IMG/VR virus record: IMGVR_UViG_3300017971_002536 | Span: 104,384-168,383 of that record | Strand: one strand, 5' to 3' | Length of the DNA: 64,000 nt | DNA from: a virus | The notes under the pieces: generated by a model | The model's input: only the letters and a program-made list of their open reading frames with translations | What the model was told of the DNA's origin: nothing | The model's database searches: none | Translations under genes and position numbers: made by a program | Part shown: positions 9,875-46,798 of the stretch, one piece after another | Layout: every line of letters begins with the position of its first letter | Position numbering within the stretch: position 1 is the first letter of the stretch

Positions 9875-11512
9875 TTAAACTTGATCAATATGACCCACAT
9901 ATATCTTCCCGTAAAATTCTGGCCTTACGATTTTCTTCGCGTAACGAGTCATAACGCCTCTGCGAGGAGTAAAATTATCAGGATCATAAATCAATGGAGT
10001 CATAATAAGTGGAATGTAAGGTGAATACACAGCACCAGTTTCCAAGAAATTACTTCCTCTAAATCCGACCAAAGCGATATTTTCAGTAAGGTAAGGATTT
10101 TTGTAAACGGTGAAACGTGAATTCAACATACCAACTTTTTGTACACCCATTGCGAATGATTGTTGGTTTCCATCAGTATCAGCAGCATATCCAGGAATAG
10201 ATTCAATAACGGTAGCAACGTCAGGACTAACAACGATGAAGTTAGCTCCACCGCGAAGTGTTAATTGATGAATTTTGTTACTTACTTTTTGAATCTTATT
10301 TCCAAGAGTTTGATACCATTCATTCTTTGTACCAGTATGAGAACCAGCATCATAGAAATTGGTTTTACCATTGTTAATTTCATATCCAGGAAGAGCTGAC
10401 CAGTAATCAGTAGTAATAGCGTTAGAAATAAGCATGTCAAGGATTTCTAAGTCAATTTCCATTCCAATATATTCACTCAAGAGAGCAGTTAACTCAGCTT
10501 CAGCGTCAATAGAGTGATATGCGTTCAAGTCTTGAGCCAATTCAGGAGTCCAAATAGCTTTCAACTTACGAGTTTTGGCGACGATAGGTTCTTGAGCAAC
10601 CGACAAGTCGATTTCAGGAATATCAAGTTTAACAAGACTTCCAGACTCAGAAGTATCTTCGAAGTCACCACGAGTATCAGCAGTAGGTTGTTTGTGATAA
10701 CGAATATCATATTCACTTGCTGAGAAGTTAGCGAATGCAGCAGCACTACCAGAAACGATCCATCTTACTGTAGCACCAACTTGAGTTGTGTAAGCAGACA
10801 AATAAGATTGAATACCACTACCACTAACAGAAAAAGCACGAACACCTTCGACATCAAGGTCAGATAAGTTACCAGTGTTATATGAAAGAGCGAAAAGTGT
10901 ACCGGCAGCCATAGAAGCACTAATATGACCATCGTCAAAACCAACATCAGCCCATGTGACAGAAGCAGTAGCGAAAGCGTCACCACTTGGAGTAGTATCA
11001 AGATCAGCAGTTCCGCCATATCCATAATCATTAATTGAGTATCCGAAACGTCCACCACCGTAAAGACCACCAGTAGCTTCATCAGTCGTTCCAGGAGTTT
11101 TACCACCACCAGTTCCACCAAAAACAGATTGATTTTGGGTAAAACCAGGTTGTGTACCACTACCATACTTAAAGTCAATGTAAAATACAAGACCGGATGG
11201 TAAGTTCATAGGTTGAATCGATACGAATTCTTTAGCGGCAACTTCACCGAAAATTCTACGTACCAAAGGAAGAGCGACACCAGACCATTGTTCAGCACCA
11301 CTACCACCAGTTTGAGAAACTTCGTCCAATAATTGGCGAGCTTGATTCTCTAATAGAATAGCCATTCCATAAATTTCATGTTCTTCGTTCATACCATCAA
11401 GAAGACCTGTTGGCTCCCATTTTTTCACGAGTCCACGAGTTTGCTCTAAAAGAGCATCATATGGATTTTGACCTTCCATTAATTTGTTTAAATTAAATAA
11501 GGTTTTACTCAT
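9875..11512 (-). CDS. 23: Major capsid protein, gp23-like
   Basis: 545 residues (T4 gp23 has 521). The N-terminal region LVKKWEPTGLLDGM, the helix AILLENQARQLLDE and the strand ALPLVRRIFGEVAAKEFVSI followed by QPMNLPSGLVFYIDF are the gp23 landmarks. LLDE ends at residue 64 before VSQTGG, matching both the gp21 consensus and the T4 cleavage after residue 65, so the first 64 residues are probably removed on maturation. A Gly-rich stretch (GGTGGGKTPGTTDEATGG) marks an insertion. The start follows GGAGAAATAAA. It forms the hexameric shell, is the last gene of the scaffold-capsid unit, and is followed by the strongest terminator in the window. Confidence 0.95.
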   Translation of the reverse strand: MSKTLFNLNKLMEGQNPYDALLEQTRGLVKKWEPTGLLDGMNEEHEIYGMAILLENQARQLLDEVSQTGGSGAEQWSGVALPLVRRIFGEVAAKEFVSIQPMNLPSGLVFYIDFKYGSGTQPGFTQNQSVFGGTGGGKTPGTTDEATGGLYGGGRFGYSINDYGYGGTADLDTTPSGDAFATASVTWADVGFDDGHISASMAAGTLFALSYNTGNLSDLDVEGVRAFSVSGSGIQSYLSAYTTQVGATVRWIVSGSAAAFANFSASEYDIRYHKQPTADTRGDFEDTSESGSLVKLDIPEIDLSVAQEPIVAKTRKLKAIWTPELAQDLNAYHSIDAEAELTALLSEYIGMEIDLEILDMLISNAITTDYWSALPGYEINNGKTNFYDAGSHTGTKNEWYQTLGNKIQKVSNKIHQLTLRGGANFIVVSPDVATVIESIPGYAADTDGNQQSFAMGVQKVGMLNSRFTVYKNPYLTENIALVGFRGSNFLETGAVYSPYIPLIMTPLIYDPDNFTPRRGVMTRYAKKIVRPEFYGKIYVGHIDQV

Positions 11513-12859: not shown

Positions 12860-13183
12860 TTATTTTAAAGAGTCCGTTTTAGAAATATTACCTTTACCAA
12901 TAGTACCTTTTACTACTACAGCGTTTCCTTTAGGAGTTATTTCTAAACCCTTTGGTTTTACGTGATGAATAACTATATCACTTTTCTTTTTCGCCAATCC
13001 TTTTTTCATGGCGGCCATGATCGCGTCCTCTTTTGATTTCGCTAACCAAATGTTCTTGTCCTTCGTCTTTGAAGAATCTAATGGAAGTTTTACATCACTT
13101 GTAGTTCCATGATACAGCGTCGCTTCGTTTAAAAATTTATTAACTTCCTCTTTAATGATTTCTTTGAGTCTTTCCATTTTCAC
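12860..13183 (-). CDS. CTS-tagged ADP-ribosyltransferase-like protein
   Basis: 107 residues, starting at a GTG (13183) with GGAGAAATAAA before it; an ATG two codons on is the alternative. Residues 1-20 form the amphipathic tag and end FLNE before ATLYHG, a clear (L)xE site. The mature part opens with LYHGTTSD, the Y-H-G-T motif of the PARP/KptA branch of ADP-ribosyltransferases, and continues with NIWLAKSKEDAIMAA, which matches the second beta-x-S-x-x-x-x-A element of that fold. T4 Alt is a head-packaged ADP-ribosyltransferase with the same tag logic, though much larger. I do not see a convincing catalytic Glu, so activity is uncertain. Confidence 0.6.
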   Translation of the reverse strand: MKMERLKEIIKEEVNKFLNEATLYHGTTSDVKLPLDSSKTKDKNIWLAKSKEDAIMAAMKKGLAKKKSDIVIHHVKPKGLEITPKGNAVVVKGTIGKGNISKTDSLK

Positions 13184-18330: not shown

Positions 18331-18939
18331 TTATTCTCCCATATCTATAAGAATATCAGTTACGATTTCTTGTACTTTACAATATTTGTTTACACATACT
18401 TGACCATACTTATCAACACTTTCTTGAATAGGTTTCATAAACGCACCGTGTGTCGATGGATTACTTACCATATCAAAAGCAATCAACTCAAAATCGTCTT
18501 GGACGACCGCACCATGTTCAGCAGATTCTTGAACCGATCCCAACCCACGAGAAGAAATACCTACAAGAATACCACCTTTCAATAATTCTTGAAGAATTTT
18601 TCCTGCAGGAGTATTCAACACTTCTATTGTACCGATTAAGTCTTTACCTTCCCAATGCATTTCAACTATATTATGACTTACATTAGCTAAGTTTACGACA
18701 GAAGAATCGGGATGATCTAACTCACCCAATGCTCGTTTTTCGCCAATCAACTGTTCATATTTTTTCGCTTCCCTGGCGAGAATAGGTTGTGGATATACAC
18801 GACCATTTTGATTTTGTGCTTCTGCTCGTTGTAATATACCCTTGATCAAAATCTTACCATTGTGTACTTTCATTGATTCTCGTATTACACCACCCGCTAT
18901 TTCTAAAGGCATATACTCCGCTAATATCTGCTTATTCAT
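18331..18939 (-). CDS. 21: Prohead core protease, gp21-like
   Basis: 202 residues (T4 gp21 has 212). GRVYPQPILAREAKKYEQLI is the conserved N-G-R-V-Y-P-x-x-I entry helix. LGELDHPDSS holds the catalytic His at residue 76, and GISSRGLGSV the catalytic Ser at 129 or 130. These are the hallmark residues of the T4-type S77 prohead proteases. In T4 the enzyme cuts scaffold, gp23 and tagged internal proteins at (L/I)-x-E inside the closed prohead. The many tagged proteins in this window are its expected substrates. The start follows GGAGAATAAAGA. Its position between core genes and scaffold is as in T4. Confidence 0.92.
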   Translation of the reverse strand: MNKQILAEYMPLEIAGGVIRESMKVHNGKILIKGILQRAEAQNQNGRVYPQPILAREAKKYEQLIGEKRALGELDHPDSSVVNLANVSHNIVEMHWEGKDLIGTIEVLNTPAGKILQELLKGGILVGISSRGLGSVQESAEHGAVVQDDFELIAFDMVSNPSTHGAFMKPIQESVDKYGQVCVNKYCKVQEIVTDILIDMGE

Positions 18940-34373: not shown

Positions 34374-37172
34374 TTACCCAAATTTAATAGAACCAAGTAT
34401 TTGATTTATAGGGGCAAACGTTCCGGTCAACTTATAAAGTTTATCCTTATACATAAATGTAATTCCTTCAGTTGGCACTATAGCATCAAATCCACCGATT
34501 GCATTCAATCTATCAAGTTGTACTTTCAACTTTTCCATCTTCTTTACATCATTCGCCGTTTCAAGTTCCTTTATCGTAGAGTCCAATTCTTTCTTCATTC
34601 GTTGTTGTGACGATTCTGGGGCGACCGCAAGAAATTCATTCAAATTCTTTAACACCTGAGCACCTAACTCCAAAAATAATAATTCAAATGGTTGTAAATT
34701 CTTCTTAACTTGAACAGCATGTTTCGTCTTGTCATACTTTAACGCCCAATCCAAAAACTTCTTGTCGTCTATTTCCTTTTTCATATCGTTGACCTTGTAT
34801 GACTTGTCATTGTACGCCCAACGTTTTATCAAATTCGTCAATACACTGTTTGGAAGTTTATATTTCTTCTTTTTCGCCTCTTTTGTAATAAAATCTTCCC
34901 ACCATTTTTGATGATACATAATGATTAAATCACTATCTTTTAATCCATATTTACTTTTTAACTTATTTAACCTATTATTGAACTTCGATTTTTGTTTTGA
35001 AAAATCTTGTGACTTTGGTAATGTGATAATTGGATTTTTTGAAAGTTTGAAATTCTCTTGAACCTCTTGATTTATTTGACGTATCATTCCATCTAACATT
35101 CTCGCTGATTCAGTACTTCCGCCCACAGGATTTCCATCTTCATCATATTCAATCGATCCGTGAAAGATTAAAATAGGAAAATCATAAGGTACTACATTCG
35201 TTGTTGCTGGATAAACTACTTCAATGTTCATGAAATTTTTACCTTCATCAAATACTTTTCTTCGTTGTTTTTCACTCAACTTTGATATAGCATTTTCCAT
35301 ATCTTTCATAGCAAATGTAAACGCATCATGAATCGCACCACGTCCGGCAAACATATCACTTATTTGTTGTGTCGTAAGGGCTTCCGCTCCAAAATTTTTG
35401 ATGTGTCCTTTGTTTCTTGCAGCGATTAATTTTCCATCTTTCCACGAAACCATAATGTTTTGACCATCTATTTTTTCTTGTACATTTTCAAGGCTTCCCT
35501 CAAGAGCCGTATCAATCATTGTTTTTAAGTCGCCAAAAGTTAAATCCCAATCATCAAATGGATGGGCAAGATGTCCAAACGCACCGCCTTCATTCAATAC
35601 TTGTTTGTCGGTCATTACATTGTTTGTCCACCATTCTTTTGAAAAAATACTTTCCTCTAATGGTTGTGATGCGTCACTCGTATCTTGTACTAATGGTTCA
35701 TGAGTCGCCATTTCTTTCTTTGGATCATCGATGATATTATCTTTCTTCTTATCACCTAATAACCAATCAACTACCTCATATCCCAAACGATTGGCGATGT
35801 GATCCATGTGTGATTTGTATTTCGCTATTGGATCAGGATAAGTTGTGTCTCTTACTCCCACGTCACCAAATGAAACATCACTTACATGATCATATTTATA
35901 TCTTTGATCAGCATATTCCTCTTTATCACCAGCTAAATAATCTACAATCTGCCATCCTAACTTGCCAGTTATTTCGTCCACGTCTCTATGATAATTGTTT
36001 GGATGTTTATAGAATGTGGCTGGCCCGTCGTCAACGGAAGCATCATCCGCTTGAGTTACCTCAAGTAATAGTTGTTTTACATTTACTTCACTTAAAAAAT
36101 CCTCTATTACGCTTGTCGCCAAGATTACACTCTCACTAAGTTTATTCGTGATCAAATCAAATGTTTTTTGATCAAATTTTCCATAAAGTTTTTTGTATAA
36201 AGCTTTCTTTCCCTTTTCACTTAATTGATCACTACCAAATAAATTTCTTAGTTGTGTTCCACTTATATTCTTTCCTGCTACATCTATCTTGAGTATAGGA
36301 GCAGTAATGTAATAACCCTCTTGATCAAATCCTTTTACATTTTTTCCGGTCCACGGTTTAAAATATTTTCCACCAAGGCGACCAGCATCTTTTTCACTAA
36401 ATACCGTCACATAAGCAGTTTTACTTGGATCATATTTCTTTTTAATTTCTACAGGATTAAATGGATTTTTTACTTTAACTATATTACCCTTTGGTATATC
36501 AAAGTTTTTAGAAATTATTTGTTTCTTTTCCATAAAGTTAAAAGGCGATCTTCCTGGCTCAACTTTATCAGATGTACCGATAAAAGTATTCTTCTTTCCA
36601 AACTTTTTCGCTAATAAATCATACATAGAATAATGACCTTTATGAAATGGTTGAAATCGACCTGCAGTTACAGCAACTACGTCCTTTACTTCGTTTTCTT
36701 CCTCTTTCACTACCATTTTCTTCGGATTCGCCAACCATGAATCATTACCAAATCTACCCTCTCCAAGTTGTGAAGCACTATCATCAAAAGTCGTTAACGC
36801 TTGTTCTAATGGTAAATCTACTTTCGTTACTGGAATGGTGTAATCGTCGCCATGTACTTCTTTATAGGCTAACCATCTATGATGTCCATCAAGTATCTTT
36901 CCCTCTTTTGATACAAATAAAGGATGTGTTACCCAATCAGTTTCCTGTATTTTCTTTTTTAAACTCTCAAGTTTCTCCGGTATATAATCTTCTTGAGTCG
37001 GTTTTAAATCACTACATTTAGCATTTCCTTGTTCATATCCAATATCATTTTCATCAAAGATTTTCAATACCTCGTCCACATCCTTGCCCTTGACCTGAGG
37101 CATATCTTTCCTCTCGATCTCTTGTATCATTTCTAAAATTATCGTTTCACTAAACTTCTTTATGTTATCCAT
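34374..37172 (-). CDS. Tagged polyprotein: ParB-like, NMN-adenylyltransferase-like and RNA-ligase-like domains
   Basis: 932 residues. After a tag-like helix (residues 5-22) comes a ParB/Srx-type domain with ILDGHHRWLA at 93-102. Next is a nucleotidyltransferase: GRFQPFHKGH at 171-180 and ISGTQLRNLF at 303-312. A middle region (375-500) has a twin L-G-(W/Y)-x-(I/V)-V-D-(Y/W)-L-x-G-D-K repeat. The last ~400 residues are a ligase: EKIDGQNIMVSW with the adenylated Lys at 567, FMNIEVVYP, and EGITFMYKDKLYKLTG near the end. Sites matching gp21 lie between domains: QLGE138, FLSE362, LLLE371, VLNE528. It would supply NAD synthesis and RNA sealing activities. Confidence 0.75.
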   Translation of the reverse strand: MDNIKKFSETIILEMIQEIERKDMPQVKGKDVDEVLKIFDENDIGYEQGNAKCSDLKPTQEDYIPEKLESLKKKIQETDWVTHPLFVSKEGKILDGHHRWLAYKEVHGDDYTIPVTKVDLPLEQALTTFDDSASQLGEGRFGNDSWLANPKKMVVKEEENEVKDVVAVTAGRFQPFHKGHYSMYDLLAKKFGKKNTFIGTSDKVEPGRSPFNFMEKKQIISKNFDIPKGNIVKVKNPFNPVEIKKKYDPSKTAYVTVFSEKDAGRLGGKYFKPWTGKNVKGFDQEGYYITAPILKIDVAGKNISGTQLRNLFGSDQLSEKGKKALYKKLYGKFDQKTFDLITNKLSESVILATSVIEDFLSEVNVKQLLLEVTQADDASVDDGPATFYKHPNNYHRDVDEITGKLGWQIVDYLAGDKEEYADQRYKYDHVSDVSFGDVGVRDTTYPDPIAKYKSHMDHIANRLGYEVVDWLLGDKKKDNIIDDPKKEMATHEPLVQDTSDASQPLEESIFSKEWWTNNVMTDKQVLNEGGAFGHLAHPFDDWDLTFGDLKTMIDTALEGSLENVQEKIDGQNIMVSWKDGKLIAARNKGHIKNFGAEALTTQQISDMFAGRGAIHDAFTFAMKDMENAISKLSEKQRRKVFDEGKNFMNIEVVYPATTNVVPYDFPILIFHGSIEYDEDGNPVGGSTESARMLDGMIRQINQEVQENFKLSKNPIITLPKSQDFSKQKSKFNNRLNKLKSKYGLKDSDLIIMYHQKWWEDFITKEAKKKKYKLPNSVLTNLIKRWAYNDKSYKVNDMKKEIDDKKFLDWALKYDKTKHAVQVKKNLQPFELLFLELGAQVLKNLNEFLAVAPESSQQRMKKELDSTIKELETANDVKKMEKLKVQLDRLNAIGGFDAIVPTEGITFMYKDKLYKLTGTFAPINQILGSIKFG

Positions 37173-37173
37173 A

Positions 37174-37728
37174 TTATTTTCCTACTTTTTGATACAACTT
37201 ATCTTTTATCTTTGGATTTATTTCTATCTTTTTCGCCTCTAAATAATCCAAGGCTTTCTTGTATTTTAATTGTTGTTTTGGTGAAGGCTTATCACTCAAG
37301 TTGTCCTCTAAATCTAATAACTTTATATCAAACGCGGTTGGCGACATCTTAGCCAATTTGTAAAGATATGTAGAATAATCTATACCTTTATCATGTGACA
37401 TAATCGTTACTAACTTAGCAATCGTTCCACCAAATAACTCTTTTATCCTCTTTAGAGTCCTTTGTGGATTTTTAGAATCTTCATACGTATCATGTAATAT
37501 AGCAAGAATTTGATGTTTCTTTGATAACCCTCTCTTTTTTGCGCGGTGATACACCCGCATTGGATGTACCATATAGGGCAACGGAGATTTCTTTCTCCAT
37601 TGACCGGAATGAACGTCACGAGCTAAATCAATAGCTTGTGTGACTTGATCTATTTCTACTAACGCAATATTGAAACGAAAGTCGTCATATTCTTCGCTTA
37701 TTAATTGACGTATCGATTCTCTTAACAA
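37174..37728 (-). CDS. CTS-tagged (p)ppGpp hydrolase-like HD enzyme
   Basis: 184 residues, starting at a TTG (37728) with CGGAGAATACTC upstream. The tag LRESIRQLISE ends I-S-E at residue 12. The catalytic domain matches SpoT/MESH1-type hydrolases: DVHSGQWRKKSPLPYMVHPM (His 40 and 55), LAILHDTYEDS (HD at 79-80) and DIKLLDLEDNLSD, where K-x-x-D-x-x-x-N corresponds to K-L-A-D-R-x-x-N. Length is typical for a small alarmone hydrolase with no synthetase domain. It would lower (p)ppGpp at injection or counter alarmone-type toxins. The stop is one base from the next gene. Confidence 0.75.
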   Translation of the reverse strand: MLRESIRQLISEEYDDFRFNIALVEIDQVTQAIDLARDVHSGQWRKKSPLPYMVHPMRVYHRAKKRGLSKKHQILAILHDTYEDSKNPQRTLKRIKELFGGTIAKLVTIMSHDKGIDYSTYLYKLAKMSPTAFDIKLLDLEDNLSDKPSPKQQLKYKKALDYLEAKKIEINPKIKDKLYQKVGK

Positions 37729-41600: not shown

Positions 41601-42458
41601 TTATTTTACTTTCATCTTTTTTAGTCGCCTTTTTAAGGCAAATCTATAATCATCTTTCTTTACCCACGTTCCTTTGATTGGCGATTTTCCTGAAGGCTCC
41701 CATTTGAAGTATAATAATCTATCAACTACTCCATCATCTTTTTGACCATCAGCAACATAATTGTGAAACGCATTACTCATTTCTTTAGCATAGTTTACTA
41801 TAATAGGAACACCTACGCTACGTCCTTCATGTTCCTTTCTCCATTGATCACGCTGTATCGCTAACTCCGGAGATATGTGTAAACAAATAATCGTATTATG
41901 AAACCCTTTCTCTTTTGTTTTTTCTAATCGGGCTAACATCTTGTCAGATTTAGCACCGACAGTATCAATGATTAAAATATTTCCTGCACTCACTATTTTT
42001 GTTTTGAATAAATCTTTTTCTTTAGATTTCGCCAAATCTCGTATGTCAAAATATGTGGCATAATACGGCCTATAAAATGACTTATAAAAATATCGTAATC
42101 CCTTTTTACCATTCATTTGCCACCACTCAAATGTTAAAGGAAATACTACTTTTTTTCCATCATTATCTTTATATTGAGTTTGTTTTACAAAAAGATCAAT
42201 GTCTTGTGGCGATCCTTTAGATTTTTCCAACCAATTAAAATGTTTCTTCGCCGTTTCATACTGGGCAGCTAAAACTTGTTTGTCCGAATTAGTCACCTTA
42301 TATCCACTAAAACCGGGAATATATCTCGTTATCTCATTATTAATGAATGTAGATTTTCCGGCGCCAGGAAGCCCCATGAGAACAATACATTGTTTTCCAA
42401 TGTCCTCTTTGAACTCATTGAGAACTTCATTTATCAACTCTCGTATTAGTTCCCGCAT
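41601..42458 (-). CDS. CTS-tagged P-loop polynucleotide kinase-like protein
   Basis: 285 residues from the ATG at 42458, preceded by GGGGAATAAT; an ATG four codons earlier overlaps that site. The tag RELIRELINEVLNE ends L-N-E at residue 15. CIVLMGLPGAGKSTFINNEI is a Walker A with GLPGAGKST, and the Ser-Asp-Lys after it (VTNSDKQVLAAQYETAKKHF) resembles the substrate loop of zeta-toxin or PNK families. ILIIDTVGAKSDKMLARLE is the Walker-B-like strand. EGRSVGVPIIVNYAKEMSNA closes the fold. T4 Pnkp repairs cut tRNAs with Rnl1; the ligase here is in the neighbouring polyprotein. A nucleotide-sugar kinase of zeta type is the alternative. Confidence 0.65.
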   Translation of the reverse strand: MRELIRELINEVLNEFKEDIGKQCIVLMGLPGAGKSTFINNEITRYIPGFSGYKVTNSDKQVLAAQYETAKKHFNWLEKSKGSPQDIDLFVKQTQYKDNDGKKVVFPLTFEWWQMNGKKGLRYFYKSFYRPYYATYFDIRDLAKSKEKDLFKTKIVSAGNILIIDTVGAKSDKMLARLEKTKEKGFHNTIICLHISPELAIQRDQWRKEHEGRSVGVPIIVNYAKEMSNAFHNYVADGQKDDGVVDRLLYFKWEPSGKSPIKGTWVKKDDYRFALKRRLKKMKVK

Positions 42459-42469
42459 ATTATTCCCCA

Positions 42470-42697
42470 TTATCTATTATATTTTTCACGATATTTAGCA
42501 TGTAAAAATGCTATATACATTGATCCACTACCACCAGTATTACTTACCGTCATTCCATCAAGAATATACCCACCAGAAATTAAATCAGTTAATTCCTCAG
42601 AAAAACTTCCTGCTCCATTCAAAGTAGCATTGGATATTGTTGCGGTTGTGAAGTCACTTGCAGCATCATATGATCCTGTTTGAAAAGTTATCGACAT
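42470..42697 (-). CDS. Small beta-rich protein, probably structural
   Basis: 75 residues, Ser/Thr/Gly-rich: ITFQTGSYDAASDFTTATIS, then LNGAGSFSEELTDLISGGYI and GGSGSMYIAFLHAKYREKYN. The composition matches virion fiber segments rather than the enzymes around it. The stop overlaps an in-frame ATG of the kinase gene (TAATG). It may be a small head or fiber accessory. No motif is visible. Confidence 0.45.
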   Translation of the reverse strand: MSITFQTGSYDAASDFTTATISNATLNGAGSFSEELTDLISGGYILDGMTVSNTGGSGSMYIAFLHAKYREKYNR

Positions 42698-42699
42698 TA

Positions 42700-44148
42700 T
42701 TATTCTCCTATTGTTTTATACATTCTATCTGTTATAGCAAAAGCTTGTTTTTTCGTCAATCCGGGATTTCCTAACAACTCACTATCTATTGCTTTTAATA
42801 ATTGTCCTATTATCATCCCGTGTGTTTTATTATTTATTTTATATCGTTTCATTATATCATTTCCATCTATCGGGCGTTTCAGCACATCTGGCTCACTTTC
42901 AAGGGCTTTCAATCTATCCTTCAACTTTGGGATTTGTAACGGCATATTATAATCATCCGCATGACTTATATTGTCAGCATGAATTAAATCCAATGTTGTT
43001 TGTAAGTGATCTTTCATATCATTTTTTAACTTCCTCAAAGTCTTATCAGTTACTCCCTCACTCTCTCCACCATATTGTTTTGTCCTCATATGATTTTGTA
43101 TAGCTTTTTTAACCTTAATGACAACTTCTTTTGGATATTTTAATCGTCGTAAAATAGCTTCCGCCATTTCCGCACTCACATCTTCGTGTTCGTAAAAATG
43201 AACTTCGTTATCAACTACCTTTTTGGTTGTCGCCTTTCCAATGTCGTGAAATAGGGCGGCGAGGCGAGTCTCTAACTCAGGTGGAGTATTCTTCAATACT
43301 TCCAATGTGTGCTTCATTGCGTCAAATTTGTGATACTTATTTTGTTCTAATCCCTTCAACTCGTCTAACTCATGAGCAACATACTTATTCAAGTTAGTCA
43401 TTTGTAATAAACGAACCGCTTTGTCAGGAGCTTTACTTATCATCATTTTACTTAACTCACTCATTACCCTCTCAGCACTTATCGTCTTTAACATATGTGA
43501 GTTACGCTTTAACGCTTTGATCATGAACATAGGTAAATCCCAACCATACTTTACGGTAAACCGGATCGCTCTTAACATCCTCAATGGATCATCTTTGAAG
43601 ATGACATCAGGATCTAATGGAGTTTGGACAACACCTTTCTTTAGATCAGTTTTACCCATTCCTGTAAGATCAAGGATTTCGCCAGTCGTTAAATCTTTCA
43701 GGAGTGAGTTTACTGTAAAGTCTCGGCGTTCAACGTCATCCTTCAGGGATCCTGGAGAAACCTTTGGTTTTCTATCTCCAAGTTTATATTGTTCCTTACG
43801 AGTCATTACGGCTTCAATCTCAATCTTACTCAAATCATATCCTTTATGATTCACTCCATATAAACGAAACGCAGCAGTACCGAATTTAGGATATACAACA
43901 GGATTCGAACCTTTCTTGTATATCTTTAGTTCCTTTGTAATCCACTCGGCAAACTTTATTCCACCTTGCGGAAACTCGATAACAATGTCTATGTCCTTTG
44001 GATTAAGACCGAGTAACTCGTCTCTTACATATCCACCTGCAAGAAATACTTTTCCTTTCCACTTTGATTTCTTTACCATTTTAGAAAGAAAATCTACCGC
44101 AGCTCGATCTATCGCTCCCTCTTGTAATAAGTTTTTTAGTTTAATCAT
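42700..44148 (-). CDS. cca: CTS-tagged CCA-adding enzyme / tRNA nucleotidyltransferase with HD domain
   Basis: 482 residues. The tag MIKLKNLLQE ends at residue 10 before GAIDRA. The class II nucleotidyltransferase head follows: FLAGGYVRDELLGLNPKDID, with GG at 38-39 and the metal-binding D-x-D at 52-54, then RDFTVNSLLKDLTTGEILDL and DDPLRMLRAIRFTVKYGWDL. A C-terminal HD domain contains LAALFHDIGKATTKK. Bacterial CCA enzymes with an HD domain have this size. It rebuilds the CCA ends of tRNA. A packaged copy could repair tRNA cut by host defences on entry. Poly(A) polymerase is the alternative. Confidence 0.8.
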   Translation of the reverse strand: MIKLKNLLQEGAIDRAAVDFLSKMVKKSKWKGKVFLAGGYVRDELLGLNPKDIDIVIEFPQGGIKFAEWITKELKIYKKGSNPVVYPKFGTAAFRLYGVNHKGYDLSKIEIEAVMTRKEQYKLGDRKPKVSPGSLKDDVERRDFTVNSLLKDLTTGEILDLTGMGKTDLKKGVVQTPLDPDVIFKDDPLRMLRAIRFTVKYGWDLPMFMIKALKRNSHMLKTISAERVMSELSKMMISKAPDKAVRLLQMTNLNKYVAHELDELKGLEQNKYHKFDAMKHTLEVLKNTPPELETRLAALFHDIGKATTKKVVDNEVHFYEHEDVSAEMAEAILRRLKYPKEVVIKVKKAIQNHMRTKQYGGESEGVTDKTLRKLKNDMKDHLQTTLDLIHADNISHADDYNMPLQIPKLKDRLKALESEPDVLKRPIDGNDIMKRYKINNKTHGMIIGQLLKAIDSELLGNPGLTKKQAFAITDRMYKTIGE

Positions 44149-44601: not shown

Positions 44602-45048
44602 TTACCAATATGGTGGCTCAGGTATAAACTTCAAGCCAGGATTTTTCGCCTTTATTTTCGGTATATGCTGTTTTATTATCTTTTGGTATTCCTTCCAATC
44701 ATATCCGCCATCTTGCATTACCACATTGACAGATTCACTCAAATAAAACTTATTCGTATTTCCGTTACGTATCCAACCAATGTAACCTCTTTTCATTCCT
44801 TTCGCTATTTTATCCATGTAATAAAATATTTCAGATGGAATTTTTACTCCAAATGGTTTTAGGTATTTCTCTATATCTGCGTGAATTATATTGTAATAAT
44901 CAACTACATAAAAATCTCCACTTGGAACACTAACACCTTTTATATCATCATCCATTCGTTTTACACTTTTAGGATTTTTATATATCTCATATCCATCTTT
45001 AGTTGTTCCTACAAAATCCTCTTTTATTAATTTTTTTAGTTTAATCAT
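44602..45048 (-). CDS. CTS-tagged protein, YKNPKS paralogue family, copy 3
   Basis: 148 residues from the ATG at 45048, with AAGGAGTTTGGCG upstream; a start at 45069 would overlap more of the preceding gene. The tag MIKLKKLIKE is followed by DFVGTTKDGYEIYKNPKSVK and RMDDDIKGVSVPSGDFYVVD, as in the sister genes, then GYIGWIRNGNTNKFYLSES and the basic KAKNPGLKFIPEP end. The conserved Y-x-N-P-K-S box, the G-(D/N)-(F/L)-Y-V strand and the F-Y-L-S-E-S strand (also in copy 2) mark a small unnamed domain. It is downstream of the 585-residue polyprotein and translationally coupled to it. Confidence 0.6.
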   Translation of the reverse strand: MIKLKKLIKEDFVGTTKDGYEIYKNPKSVKRMDDDIKGVSVPSGDFYVVDYYNIIHADIEKYLKPFGVKIPSEIFYYMDKIAKGMKRGYIGWIRNGNTNKFYLSESVNVVMQDGGYDWKEYQKIIKQHIPKIKAKNPGLKFIPEPPYW

Positions 45049-46798
45049 CGCCAAACTCCTTCTTTCCATATCTCGCTGATTGTGGTTTTCTTATCATAAA
45101 CTCACTCTTGTATACTTTTATTGGACGTTTTTCAACAGACTCGGCGAAAATTACGATGTCGTCTAATAATTTCTTGTGTCGTTGTAATGATTTTTTGGTA
45201 GCAGTAAATCCTATTTCCCCTTTTCTACCGGAAATTCTTACCCAACCGTCCTTCATCGCTTCGTTGATAACCGCTTCATATATTATAGACCACTCATTAG
45301 CATCAGCATGAGCTAATCGAGATTTGAATGGCTTAAACTTACCTACATTTTTTACTAACCAATCAACGTGTTCTAATTCCGGAACAGCATGAACTTGACC
45401 CTTTGGATCAACTAAACCATTTCTACCTTTAGCAATTTTTACCAACTCGTCCGATTGATCTTCATATAAAATAATTATTTCACGTATCAAATCTTTGAAT
45501 CTAATTACTCCATCACCTAAACCCTTACGCATTCTATGACGAGCTGCGGCAGGAAGTTCGCCTTTCTTGGCGCCCCGTACATCTTTCTTCGATCCCATTC
45601 CTTTAGGTACTTGCTTGTCCTTTTTAAGCATTGGTGAAACCGCATGAGATTTTCCCTTTCCAACTTGTTTTTCACTTCCTTGATAATCTTCTAACGGTAT
45701 TAATTTTTGAGCCGTTCCTGCAGGAAAATCATCCCACGCGCCCCAGCGTTTATCTTTTGGATCATATATTTTTCCACCTTTATCTAAAATTTCTATCTTA
45801 TATCCATTATTCCAAATCTTTATCGTTTTTCCATGTTCTTCTTTAAATGCATCTTCAATCTTAGATACAATAGATTTCATTTGGTTCTTTTTTGGAAATT
45901 CCCAGAATGTAATAACTTTCTTTTTATACCAAAGGCGACCCGGAAATTTCAATGATTTTCGTGATAACCAACCATCTGGCGATTGCATGTCTCCGTGTGT
46001 ATATCCTTCACTACCGACATACATTTTATTTTTCCACATACCAAAAGGTACGGCATTTCTATGCCATTCTAAATTATATTTTCCTATACTTACTCCATCA
46101 GGATTTTCTAATAATAATTCTCCAAGTTTTATTGTTCCATCACCTAAACCTTTACGAATACGATGTCTGGCAGCAGCAGGTGTCTCTCCCTTTCGTTGTC
46201 CTTTTACCTTTTTCTTTGATCCCATGCCCATAGGAACTTCGCGTCTACCTTTCTTGAGTAACGGAGATTTCATATGTGAGATTTCTTTACCACGTTGTTT
46301 TTGACTTCCCTCATACTTCTCTATTGGAATTAACATCAAATCACCTTGTACATCGTATGCATCCCATGAAGGCTCTCTCGGATCGTCTTCTCGTGAATCC
46401 GGACGATATATTTTTCCACCTTTATCTATTACCTCTACTTGCCATCCGTTATTCCAAATCTTTAACCCTGACCCACGTTCTAACTTAGATATAATACTCT
46501 TGATTTGATTTTGTTTTGGAAATTCCCAAAATGATATGACTTTATCCTCGGCCCATAACCTACCGGGATATTTGTAATCTCCCCGCAAATATGGGAAATC
46601 ATCATAATCTTTTTCCTTTATTTCGCCACGATCTAATAAATGATCACGGATCGCGAAATGAACTCCACCAGGATCACTGAAATAGGCTTTACCTTTGTGT
46701 ATTCCAAATGCGTGAGCGTCACCTTCAGTATAACTTAAACGTGTATTACCTACATATACACCATCAGGGTTCTCTCTCAACAATTTTTTTAGTTTCAT
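45041..46798 (-). CDS. CTS-tagged tandem polyprotein (two ENPDG repeats plus third domain)
   Basis: 585 residues built of a duplicated ~210-residue unit. Unit 1 (1-220) starts MKLKKLLRE then NPDGVYVGN; unit 2 (221-430) starts TIKLGELLLE then NPDGVSIGK. Both share ISFWEFPKQNQIKSI / ITFWEFPKKNQMKSI and end in a GMGSKK...AAARHRxRKGLGDG linker. A third tag-like stretch VIRFKDLIREIIILYE (431-446) precedes a 140-residue end domain (LVKIAKGRNGLVDPKGQVHA) distantly like the YKNPKS family. Cleavage after E9, E231 and E440 or E446 would release three mature domains. This is the clearest case of the tag repeated inside one chain. Confidence 0.65.
   Translation of the reverse strand: MKLKKLLRENPDGVYVGNTRLSYTEGDAHAFGIHKGKAYFSDPGGVHFAIRDHLLDRGEIKEKDYDDFPYLRGDYKYPGRLWAEDKVISFWEFPKQNQIKSIISKLERGSGLKIWNNGWQVEVIDKGGKIYRPDSREDDPREPSWDAYDVQGDLMLIPIEKYEGSQKQRGKEISHMKSPLLKKGRREVPMGMGSKKKVKGQRKGETPAAARHRIRKGLGDGTIKLGELLLENPDGVSIGKYNLEWHRNAVPFGMWKNKMYVGSEGYTHGDMQSPDGWLSRKSLKFPGRLWYKKKVITFWEFPKKNQMKSIVSKIEDAFKEEHGKTIKIWNNGYKIEILDKGGKIYDPKDKRWGAWDDFPAGTAQKLIPLEDYQGSEKQVGKGKSHAVSPMLKKDKQVPKGMGSKKDVRGAKKGELPAAARHRMRKGLGDGVIRFKDLIREIIILYEDQSDELVKIAKGRNGLVDPKGQVHAVPELEHVDWLVKNVGKFKPFKSRLAHADANEWSIIYEAVINEAMKDGWVRISGRKGEIGFTATKKSLQRHKKLLDDIVIFAESVEKRPIKVYKSEFMIRKPQSARYGKKEFGDD

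What the first reader, a model, noticed from the sequence alone, without database searches (positions are those of the whole stretch)
34374..37172. Polyprotein of ParB-like, nucleotidyltransferase and RNA-ligase-like domains with gp21-type sites at the domain borders
Seen: ILDGHHRWLA, GRFQPFHKGH, KIDGQN and ISGTQLRNLF motifs in one 932-residue chain, with QLGE138, FLSE362, LLLE371 and VLNE528 falling between the domains rather than inside them. Inference: prohead protease could free three or more packaged enzymes, including NAD-synthesis-type and RNA-sealing-type activities, delivered in equal amounts.
Basis: partly seen in the sequence, partly recalled or inferred. Interest (0 to 1): 0.85.

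Follow-up and report, generated by a model that had tools for sequence, protein, structure and literature searches.

The report
Phage head polyprotein with self-tagged enzymes
This phage gene encodes three enzyme-like domains strung together, each preceded by a short tag like the ones T4-type phages use to load proteins into the virus head and then cut off, and hundreds of related phages keep either that cutting site or a built-in second start codon at the same border, so the enzymes are very probably made as one chain, released, and injected into the host with the DNA.

Summary
The 932-residue chain is real and its domains are as described: ParB/sulfiredoxin, NMNAT, and an RNA-ligase-type nucleotidyltransferase. 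AlphaFold puts all proposed sites outside folded cores. L/I-x-E alone is weak evidence (14 in the chain, about 9 by chance), so I tested the borders in relatives.

In 63 non-redundant ligase chains, the residue before the ligase is Glu in 46, nearly always L/I-x-E, while the linker upstream is unconserved. In 15 others it is Met, preceded by AAGGAG and a 9-base spacer (13 of 15 exact): an internal translation start at the same residue. The two states interchanged at least four times. The NMNAT, 'DDGP' and kinase-module borders also carry the Glu, whether terminal or internal. The same tag opens many other head-module proteins here, and matches T4's capsid-targeting sequence in register.

So a head-targeted polyprotein cut by the gp21-type protease is well supported (about 0.75), but no protein data exist. 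Corrections: VVKE157 fits the family's NMNAT border better than QLGE138; an N-terminal tag (E14/E18) was missed; equal dosage is not general, because some relatives use an internal start. Cleavage, packaging and enzyme activity remain untested.

The parts
37119..37172 (-). N-terminal tag, residues 1-18, MDNIKKFSETIILE14|MIQE18|: capsid-targeting-like tag with one or two candidate gp21 cuts
   Evidence: strict CTS-like pattern at E18; pLDDT < 50; the relative L117 has ..FSEQILLEMIQE|IERK
36762..37100 (-). ParB/sulfiredoxin-like domain, residues 25-137 (DGHHRW)
   Evidence: PHROG 2859 at 3.9e-21; tblastn to DarB-like/PLxRFG virion proteins, best 5e-8; Foldseek to ParB-N 5k5d 6.4e-4 and to sulfiredoxin
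36696..36761 (-). linker 138-159 with QLGE138|G and VVKE157|E; E157 is the family-consistent cut before NMNAT
   Evidence: pLDDT < 50; [LIVM]xE 5-7 residues before the first NMNAT strand in 14 of 16 internal cases against 11% background
36138..36695 (-). NMNAT (NadM-type) nucleotidyltransferase, residues 160-345, GRFQPFHKGH and ISGTQLR
   Evidence: Pfam CTP_transf_like 1.1e-4; Foldseek to NadM 2r5w 2.9e-5
36060..36137 (-). double tag, residues 346-371: SVIEDFLSE362|VNVKQLLLE371|
   Evidence: strict CTS-like pattern at both; Glu exactly 9 residues before DDGP in 13 of 17 relatives; pLDDT < 50 for 360-364 and 366-391
35652..36059 (-). DDGP module, residues 372-507, mostly disordered with two short repeated helices (LGWQIVDYLAGD / LGYEVVDWLLGD)
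   Evidence: conserved in relatives
35589..35651 (-). third tag, residues 508-528, SIFSKEWWTNNVMTDKQVLNE528|
   Evidence: P1 Glu in 46 of 63 nr chains, P3 L/I/M in all 43 with long upstream sequence
34377..35588 (-). RNA-ligase-type nucleotidyltransferase, residues 529-932
   Evidence: K567, D569, G570, R586, E651, E902 and K914 invariant in 49 sequences; AF2 pLDDT 90, pTM 0.84; Foldseek top hits archaeal Rnl3 RNA ligases, prob 0.97 but E 7.7e-3
18331..18939 (-). gp21-type prohead protease (S77), the presumed cutting enzyme
   Evidence: Pfam PF03420 4.7e-30
9875..11512 (-). gp23-type major capsid protein with a predicted maturation cut QLLDE64|VSQT, like the chain's QLLLE371|VTQA
   Evidence: Pfam Gp23 1.5e-79; site seen
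45041..46798 (-). second probable polyprotein, 585 aa: two NPDG modules, each directly after a tag (MKLKKLLRE9|NPDGV, IKLGELLLE231|NPDGV), then FKDLIRE440|
37174..37728 (-). neighbouring HD_4 hydrolase with N-terminal tag MLRESIRQLISE|
   Evidence: Pfam HD_4 3.9e-7; tag
42700..44148 (-). CCA-adding tRNA nucleotidyltransferase with N-terminal tag MIKLKNLLQE|G
   Evidence: PHROG 2244 1.2e-54; tag
41601..42470 (-). P-loop kinase (zeta-toxin-like) with N-terminal tag MRELIRELINEVLNE|F
   Evidence: Pfam Zeta_toxin 1.6e-6; tag

Best explanation
The chain is a cargo polyprotein of a T4-type phage head. The N-terminal capsid-targeting-like tag, and probably the second (double) tag, draw it into the prohead core. 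The gp21-type protease then cuts after Glu in hydrophobic-hydrophobic-x-Glu sites in the linkers (E14/E18, E157 and/or E138, E362, E371, E528). This frees a ParB/Srx domain, an NMNAT, a small DDGP module and an RNA-ligase-type enzyme that stay in the head and enter the host with the DNA. Shown by sequence: domains, linkers, tags, their conservation and exchange. Inferred: cutting, packaging, delivery, and a role in RNA repair and NAD replenishment in the first minutes of infection.
For: (1) gp21-type S77 protease in the same head module, and in 10 of 12 relative contigs searched. (2) The T4-CTS-like pattern opens 30 of 171 proteins of this genome against 6.4 in shuffles, concentrated in the head module. 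The same pattern finds T4's ipII E10, ipIII E10, gp23 E65 and gp24 E10. T4 rule: L/I-x-E cut, residues 4 and 7 targeting, 8 and 10 processing (PMC9026906). (3) Ligase border in 43 nr chains: P1 Glu 43/43, P3 L/I/M, P4 hydrophobic, upstream unconserved. The search patterns lay deep in the domain, so the border was not selected for. (4) 15 nr chains have instead an internal Shine-Dalgarno and ATG at the same residue; codons AAG 14/15 and GAG 14/14, p 1e-7 and 3e-9. None of the 46 Glu chains has it, and their Glu codons match background. At least 4 interchanges on the tree. (5) DDGP border 15/17, NMNAT internal border 14/16, kinase module 13/13. (6) Stand-alone ligases carry the tag N-terminally: L003 MKFLKSYEEFLNENLILE|GG, L110 MIRLHKILNEVLLKE|GG; fused L151 carries EEMIRLKKLLNEVLLTE|GG internally. 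(7) AF2 places the sites in linkers.
Against: No virion proteomics or cleavage data. L/I-x-E is short and common. The ligase-border tag usually lacks the targeting hydrophobic at -7, so it looks like a cut site only. QLGE138 is poorly conserved. Avoidance of the motif inside the ligase domain (0.13 of expected) is matched partly by control motifs and is absent in the NMNAT, so it proves nothing. LR756508 lacks the ligase-border Glu.
Confidence: 0.75

Rival explanations
1. Packaged but delivered as an uncut multidomain polyvalent protein, like the phage N4 virion RNA polymerase; the linker Glu residues are remnants of older separate genes.
For: Polyvalent proteins with ParB domains are often packaged, and some are transferred uncut (PMC5512222). 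The ParB domain matches DarB-like/PLxRFG virion proteins.
Against: Remnants would not keep an invariant Glu in otherwise unconserved linkers at several kinds of border, nor be exchanged repeatedly for an internal start at the same residue.
Confidence: 0.12
2. Not packaged: a cytoplasmic fusion enzyme for RNA repair and NAD supply made late in infection, with the tags serving as flexible linkers.
For: Some relatives make the ligase from an internal start without any tag, so that free ligase may act in the infected cell.
Against: Head-module position next to terminase, portal and gp21 here and in Mel-JY01; tags in the T4 CTS register on many unrelated neighbours.
Confidence: 0.1
3. The border pattern is structural: hydrophobic-hydrophobic-x-Glu-Gly-Gly is the first element of the ligase fold and has nothing to do with proteolysis.
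For: The motif directly abuts the domain and is almost invariant.
Against: The first residues of the ligase model are disordered and the border has low confidence in the full-chain model. Glu is replaced by Met with a Shine-Dalgarno site in 15 nr chains. The same motif precedes unrelated domains.
Confidence: 0.03

Closest known systems
T4 internal head proteins with capsid-targeting sequence (IPI-III, Alt), cut by gp21
   Same: short N-terminal hydrophobic tag ending in L/I-x-E, same register as MKTYQEFIAE|A and gp24 MAKINELLRE|; S77 protease encoded nearby
   Different: T4 cargo is one protein per gene with one N-terminal tag; here several enzymes share one chain with tags or cut sites between them
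Polyvalent proteins (Iyer et al. 2017, PMC5512222)
   Same: multidomain phage proteins near virion genes, including a ParB/Srx domain; some packaged and processed
   Different: those are thought to be cut by their own built-in metallopeptidase domain; none found here, and the sites fit the separate prohead protease
phiKZ/SPN3US head proteins cut by gp175/gp245
   Same: many head proteins cut after Glu, often at several sites (PMC5694885, PMC10052503)
   Different: A/S-x-E motif; nearly all cuts remove propeptides rather than separate enzyme domains
NadM-type NMN adenylyltransferase
   Same: HxGH and ISGTxxR motifs, Foldseek to 2r5w 2.9e-5
   Different: embedded in a phage chain; some relatives have GPHH or GAHH in place of HxGH
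Archaeal Rnl3-type RNA ligases
   Same: KxDG, Glu and Lys catalytic motifs; Foldseek top hits, prob 0.97
   Different: remote: 13-14% identity, E 7.7e-3; no Pfam family (3 of 49 members touch RNA_ligase weakly)

Membership tests
T4-type CTS-tagged, gp21-processed head protein | S77 prohead protease encoded by the same phage | tested here: met
   18331-18939, PF03420 4.7e-30; 10 of 12 relatives
T4-type CTS-tagged, gp21-processed head protein | N-terminal 10-20 residue tag with hydrophobics at 4, 7 and 8 and Glu at 10, or equivalent | tested here: met
   strict pattern at E18; 31 of 51 relatives at the N-terminus against 0.5% background
T4-type CTS-tagged, gp21-processed head protein | cut site L/I-x-E in an accessible segment | tested here: met
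   E157 has V at P3
T4-type CTS-tagged, gp21-processed head protein | cut form present inside virions | not testable with these tools
   needs virion proteomics
Polyvalent protein | several conflict-type domains in one chain near virion genes | tested here: met
   ParB/Srx, NMNAT, ligase; head module
Polyvalent protein | resident metallopeptidase domain for self-cutting | tested here: not met
   no peptidase match in Pfam or PHROGs; it is frequent but not universal in that class
NMN adenylyltransferase (NadM-like) | fold and HxGH / ISxTxxR motifs | tested here: met
NMN adenylyltransferase (NadM-like) | NAD synthesis from NMN and ATP | not testable with these tools
   needs enzyme assay
ATP-dependent RNA ligase | KxDG lysine and downstream Glu/Lys motifs in order | tested here: met
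   invariant in 49 sequences
ATP-dependent RNA ligase | significant match to a known ligase family or fold | tested here: inconclusive
   Foldseek Rnl3 prob 0.97 but E 7.7e-3 and low TM; weak Pfam hits in 3 of 49

The most novel reading that the evidence does not exclude
Uncultured T4-type phages, found here in hundreds of viral contigs, assemble their head cargo from interchangeable tag-plus-domain cassettes. Enzymes for RNA sealing, NAD synthesis, nucleotide phosphorylation and others are shuffled between separate genes and giant polyproteins, and each domain border keeps either a prohead-protease site or an internal ribosome start. The result is a programmable, virion-delivered enzyme kit acting before any phage gene is expressed, probably against host RNA-cutting and NAD-depleting defences.
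Probability: 0.45. Interest if true: 0.88.

Novelty: new variant of a known kind. Interest (0 to 1): 0.77.

Why it matters
Known T4-type cargo is one protein per gene. A chain whose borders alternate between a protease site and an internal start codon would be a true polyprotein strategy in a tailed phage, and would let packaged enzymes be read from sequence by their tags. It also gives a direct test of what phages inject besides DNA: here an RNA ligase and an NAD-making enzyme, and probably a CCA-adding enzyme and a kinase from neighbouring tagged genes. It explains a widespread annotation ('cytidyltransferase-like protein') as part of a larger system.

Tried and rejected
Counting L/I-x-E alone: too common to be evidence. 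Avoidance of the motif inside domains: control motifs are depleted too, and the NMNAT shows none; dropped. HNH inserts at the borders of L006, L120 and L145 as group I introns: Rfam found none, so they are treated as in-frame insertions of unknown fate. An intein explanation for those inserts was rejected because the junctions lack the intein ends. Literature search for virion proteomics of Flavobacterium phage immuto, Pelagibacter phage HTVC008M or Microcystis phage Mel-JY01: none found in the library. Host genomes: matches only in MAG contigs, mostly short and probably viral carry-over; no host assigned. PDB profile hits to ribosomal protein eS6 taken as Lys-rich chance.

Full report
What is there. 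The ORF at 34374-37172(-) encodes 932 residues. It lies in the head module of a T4-type phage (168-kb virus record) with a gp21-type protease, gp23-type capsid protein, portal and terminase. Domain identities: ParB/sulfiredoxin, NMNAT of NadM type and an RNA-ligase-type nucleotidyltransferase with invariant catalytic residues. AlphaFold2 shows three folded blocks (about 25-137, 160-345, 530-932) separated by low-confidence linkers that hold the proposed sites.

Is it more than chance? L/I-x-E alone is not: 14 against 9.1 expected, although 8 of the 14 fall in 112 linker residues. So I turned to relatives. The searches used patterns deep inside the ligase and NMNAT domains, not at their borders, so the borders were not pre-selected.

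The ligase border. In 63 chains non-redundant at 85% identity the residue before GGA[YA]GH is Glu in 46, Met in 15 and Cys in 2. Among 43 Glu chains with long upstream sequence, P1 is Glu in all, P3 is L, I or M in all, P4 is hydrophobic in all, P2 is free, and positions -5 to -24 show no conservation. That is the T4 gp21 rule (L/I-x-E; PMC9026906). The Glu codon is GAA or GAG at background ratio, so selection is on the amino acid.

The alternative. In the 15 Met chains the DNA reads AAG GAG TTA then two Leu codons then ATG GGN (13 of 15 exact AAGGAG; AAG 14/15 and GAG 14/14 against backgrounds of 0.27 and 0.25, p 1e-7 and 3e-9). None of the 46 Glu chains has such a Shine-Dalgarno site. In L118 the ligase is a separate gene starting at that very ATG. 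A ligase tree needs at least four changes between the states by well-supported branches, eight by parsimony. Two unrelated devices that both yield a polypeptide beginning at the same Gly-Gly, exchanged repeatedly, are hard to explain unless the free ligase is the needed product.

Other borders. The DDGP module has hydrophobic-L/I-x-Glu upstream in 15 of 17, with Glu exactly 9 residues before DDGP in 13 (background 0.9%). Internal NMNAT borders have [LIVM]xE 5-7 residues before the first strand in 14 of 16 (background 11%); in the window this is VVKE157, not QLGE138. A kinase module found in marine relatives is preceded by [LIVF]xE|G in 13 of 13, whether at a chain start or inside. Pelagibacter phage HTVC008M has that kinase as a separate gene, MIPFILKE|GLYDPGIFK. 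Stand-alone ligases keep the tag at their N-terminus (L003, L110, L182). In L095-L109 the domain order is reversed and the ligase still follows a Glu.

The tag. A T4-CTS-like pattern opens 30 of 171 proteins in this genome against 6.4 in shuffles, mostly in the head module, typically MIKLKKLIKE. As a positive control the same pattern returns E10 of ipII and ipIII, E65 of gp23 and E10 of gp24 (MAKINELLRE) in T4; that these are mapped gp21 cuts is established knowledge. It misses ipI. N-termini of complete relative chains match in 31 of 51 against 0.5%. The window's 585-aa ORF 45041-46798 has two NPDG modules, each beginning directly after such a tag. The predicted capsid-protein cut QLLDE64|VSQT resembles the chain's QLLLE371|VTQA.

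Mechanism. Shown by sequence: domains, linkers, tags, conservation, exchange, linkage to the protease. Inferred: targeting to the core by the N-terminal (and perhaps second) tag, cutting by gp21, retention and injection. The ligase-border tag usually lacks the targeting hydrophobic and is probably a cut site only. Function is inferred: RNA sealing plus NAD synthesis, next to tagged genes for a CCA-adding enzyme, a kinase and an HD hydrolase, suggests a repair kit acting at the start of infection.

Compared with what is known. It works like T4 internal head proteins, but as a polyprotein. It overlaps polyvalent proteins (PMC5512222) but no resident peptidase was found. Searches of the paper library found no description of this arrangement. 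Relatives sit in databases as 'cytidyltransferase-like' proteins. I file it as a new variant of a known kind.

Noticed in passing
window 45041-46798 (-): 585-aa ORF with two NPDG modules each directly after a capsid-targeting-like tag, and further internal tags: a second probable polyprotein; the same module is inserted in the relative chain L117 after NVMTE.
   Followed up: partly
L006:5995-9411, L120:5956-9105, L145:5956-9117: HNH/NUMOD-type endonuclease domains inserted in frame at or next to the domain borders; no Rfam intron match. L158 has only a 16-codon insert at the same place. In these the Glu at the ligase border is replaced by Cys.
   Followed up: partly
L140:2688-6234, L141:947-4493: Probable intein in the ligase catalytic motif: the second ORF begins with an intein-like end ..GILVHN|TDGQ, right at the active-site KTDG.
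   Followed up: no
window 12860-13183 (-): 107-aa protein MKMERLKEIIKEEVNKFLNE|ATLYHGTT..: tag followed by a YHGT segment that resembles a small ADP-ribosyltransferase; T4 packages the ADP-ribosyltransferase Alt.
   Followed up: no
window 37174-37728 (-): HD_4 (SpoT/Mesh1-like) hydrolase with N-terminal tag, directly upstream of the chain; a possible packaged alarmone hydrolase.
   Followed up: no
window 42700-44148 and 41601-42470 (-): CCA-adding enzyme and P-loop kinase, both with capsid-targeting-like N-termini: possibly a packaged tRNA repair kit together with the ligase.
   Followed up: no
L173 (Flavobacterium phage immuto) and L174 (Pelagibacter phage HTVC008M): Cultured phages with single-domain versions of the same modules carrying the same tags (e.g. 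MKKSQLRQIIKE|ALD, MIPFILKE|GLY): usable laboratory models.
   Followed up: partly
L095-L109: Reversed domain order, ligase before NMNAT, in a separate clade of viral contigs, some chains starting with further unknown domains.
   Followed up: partly
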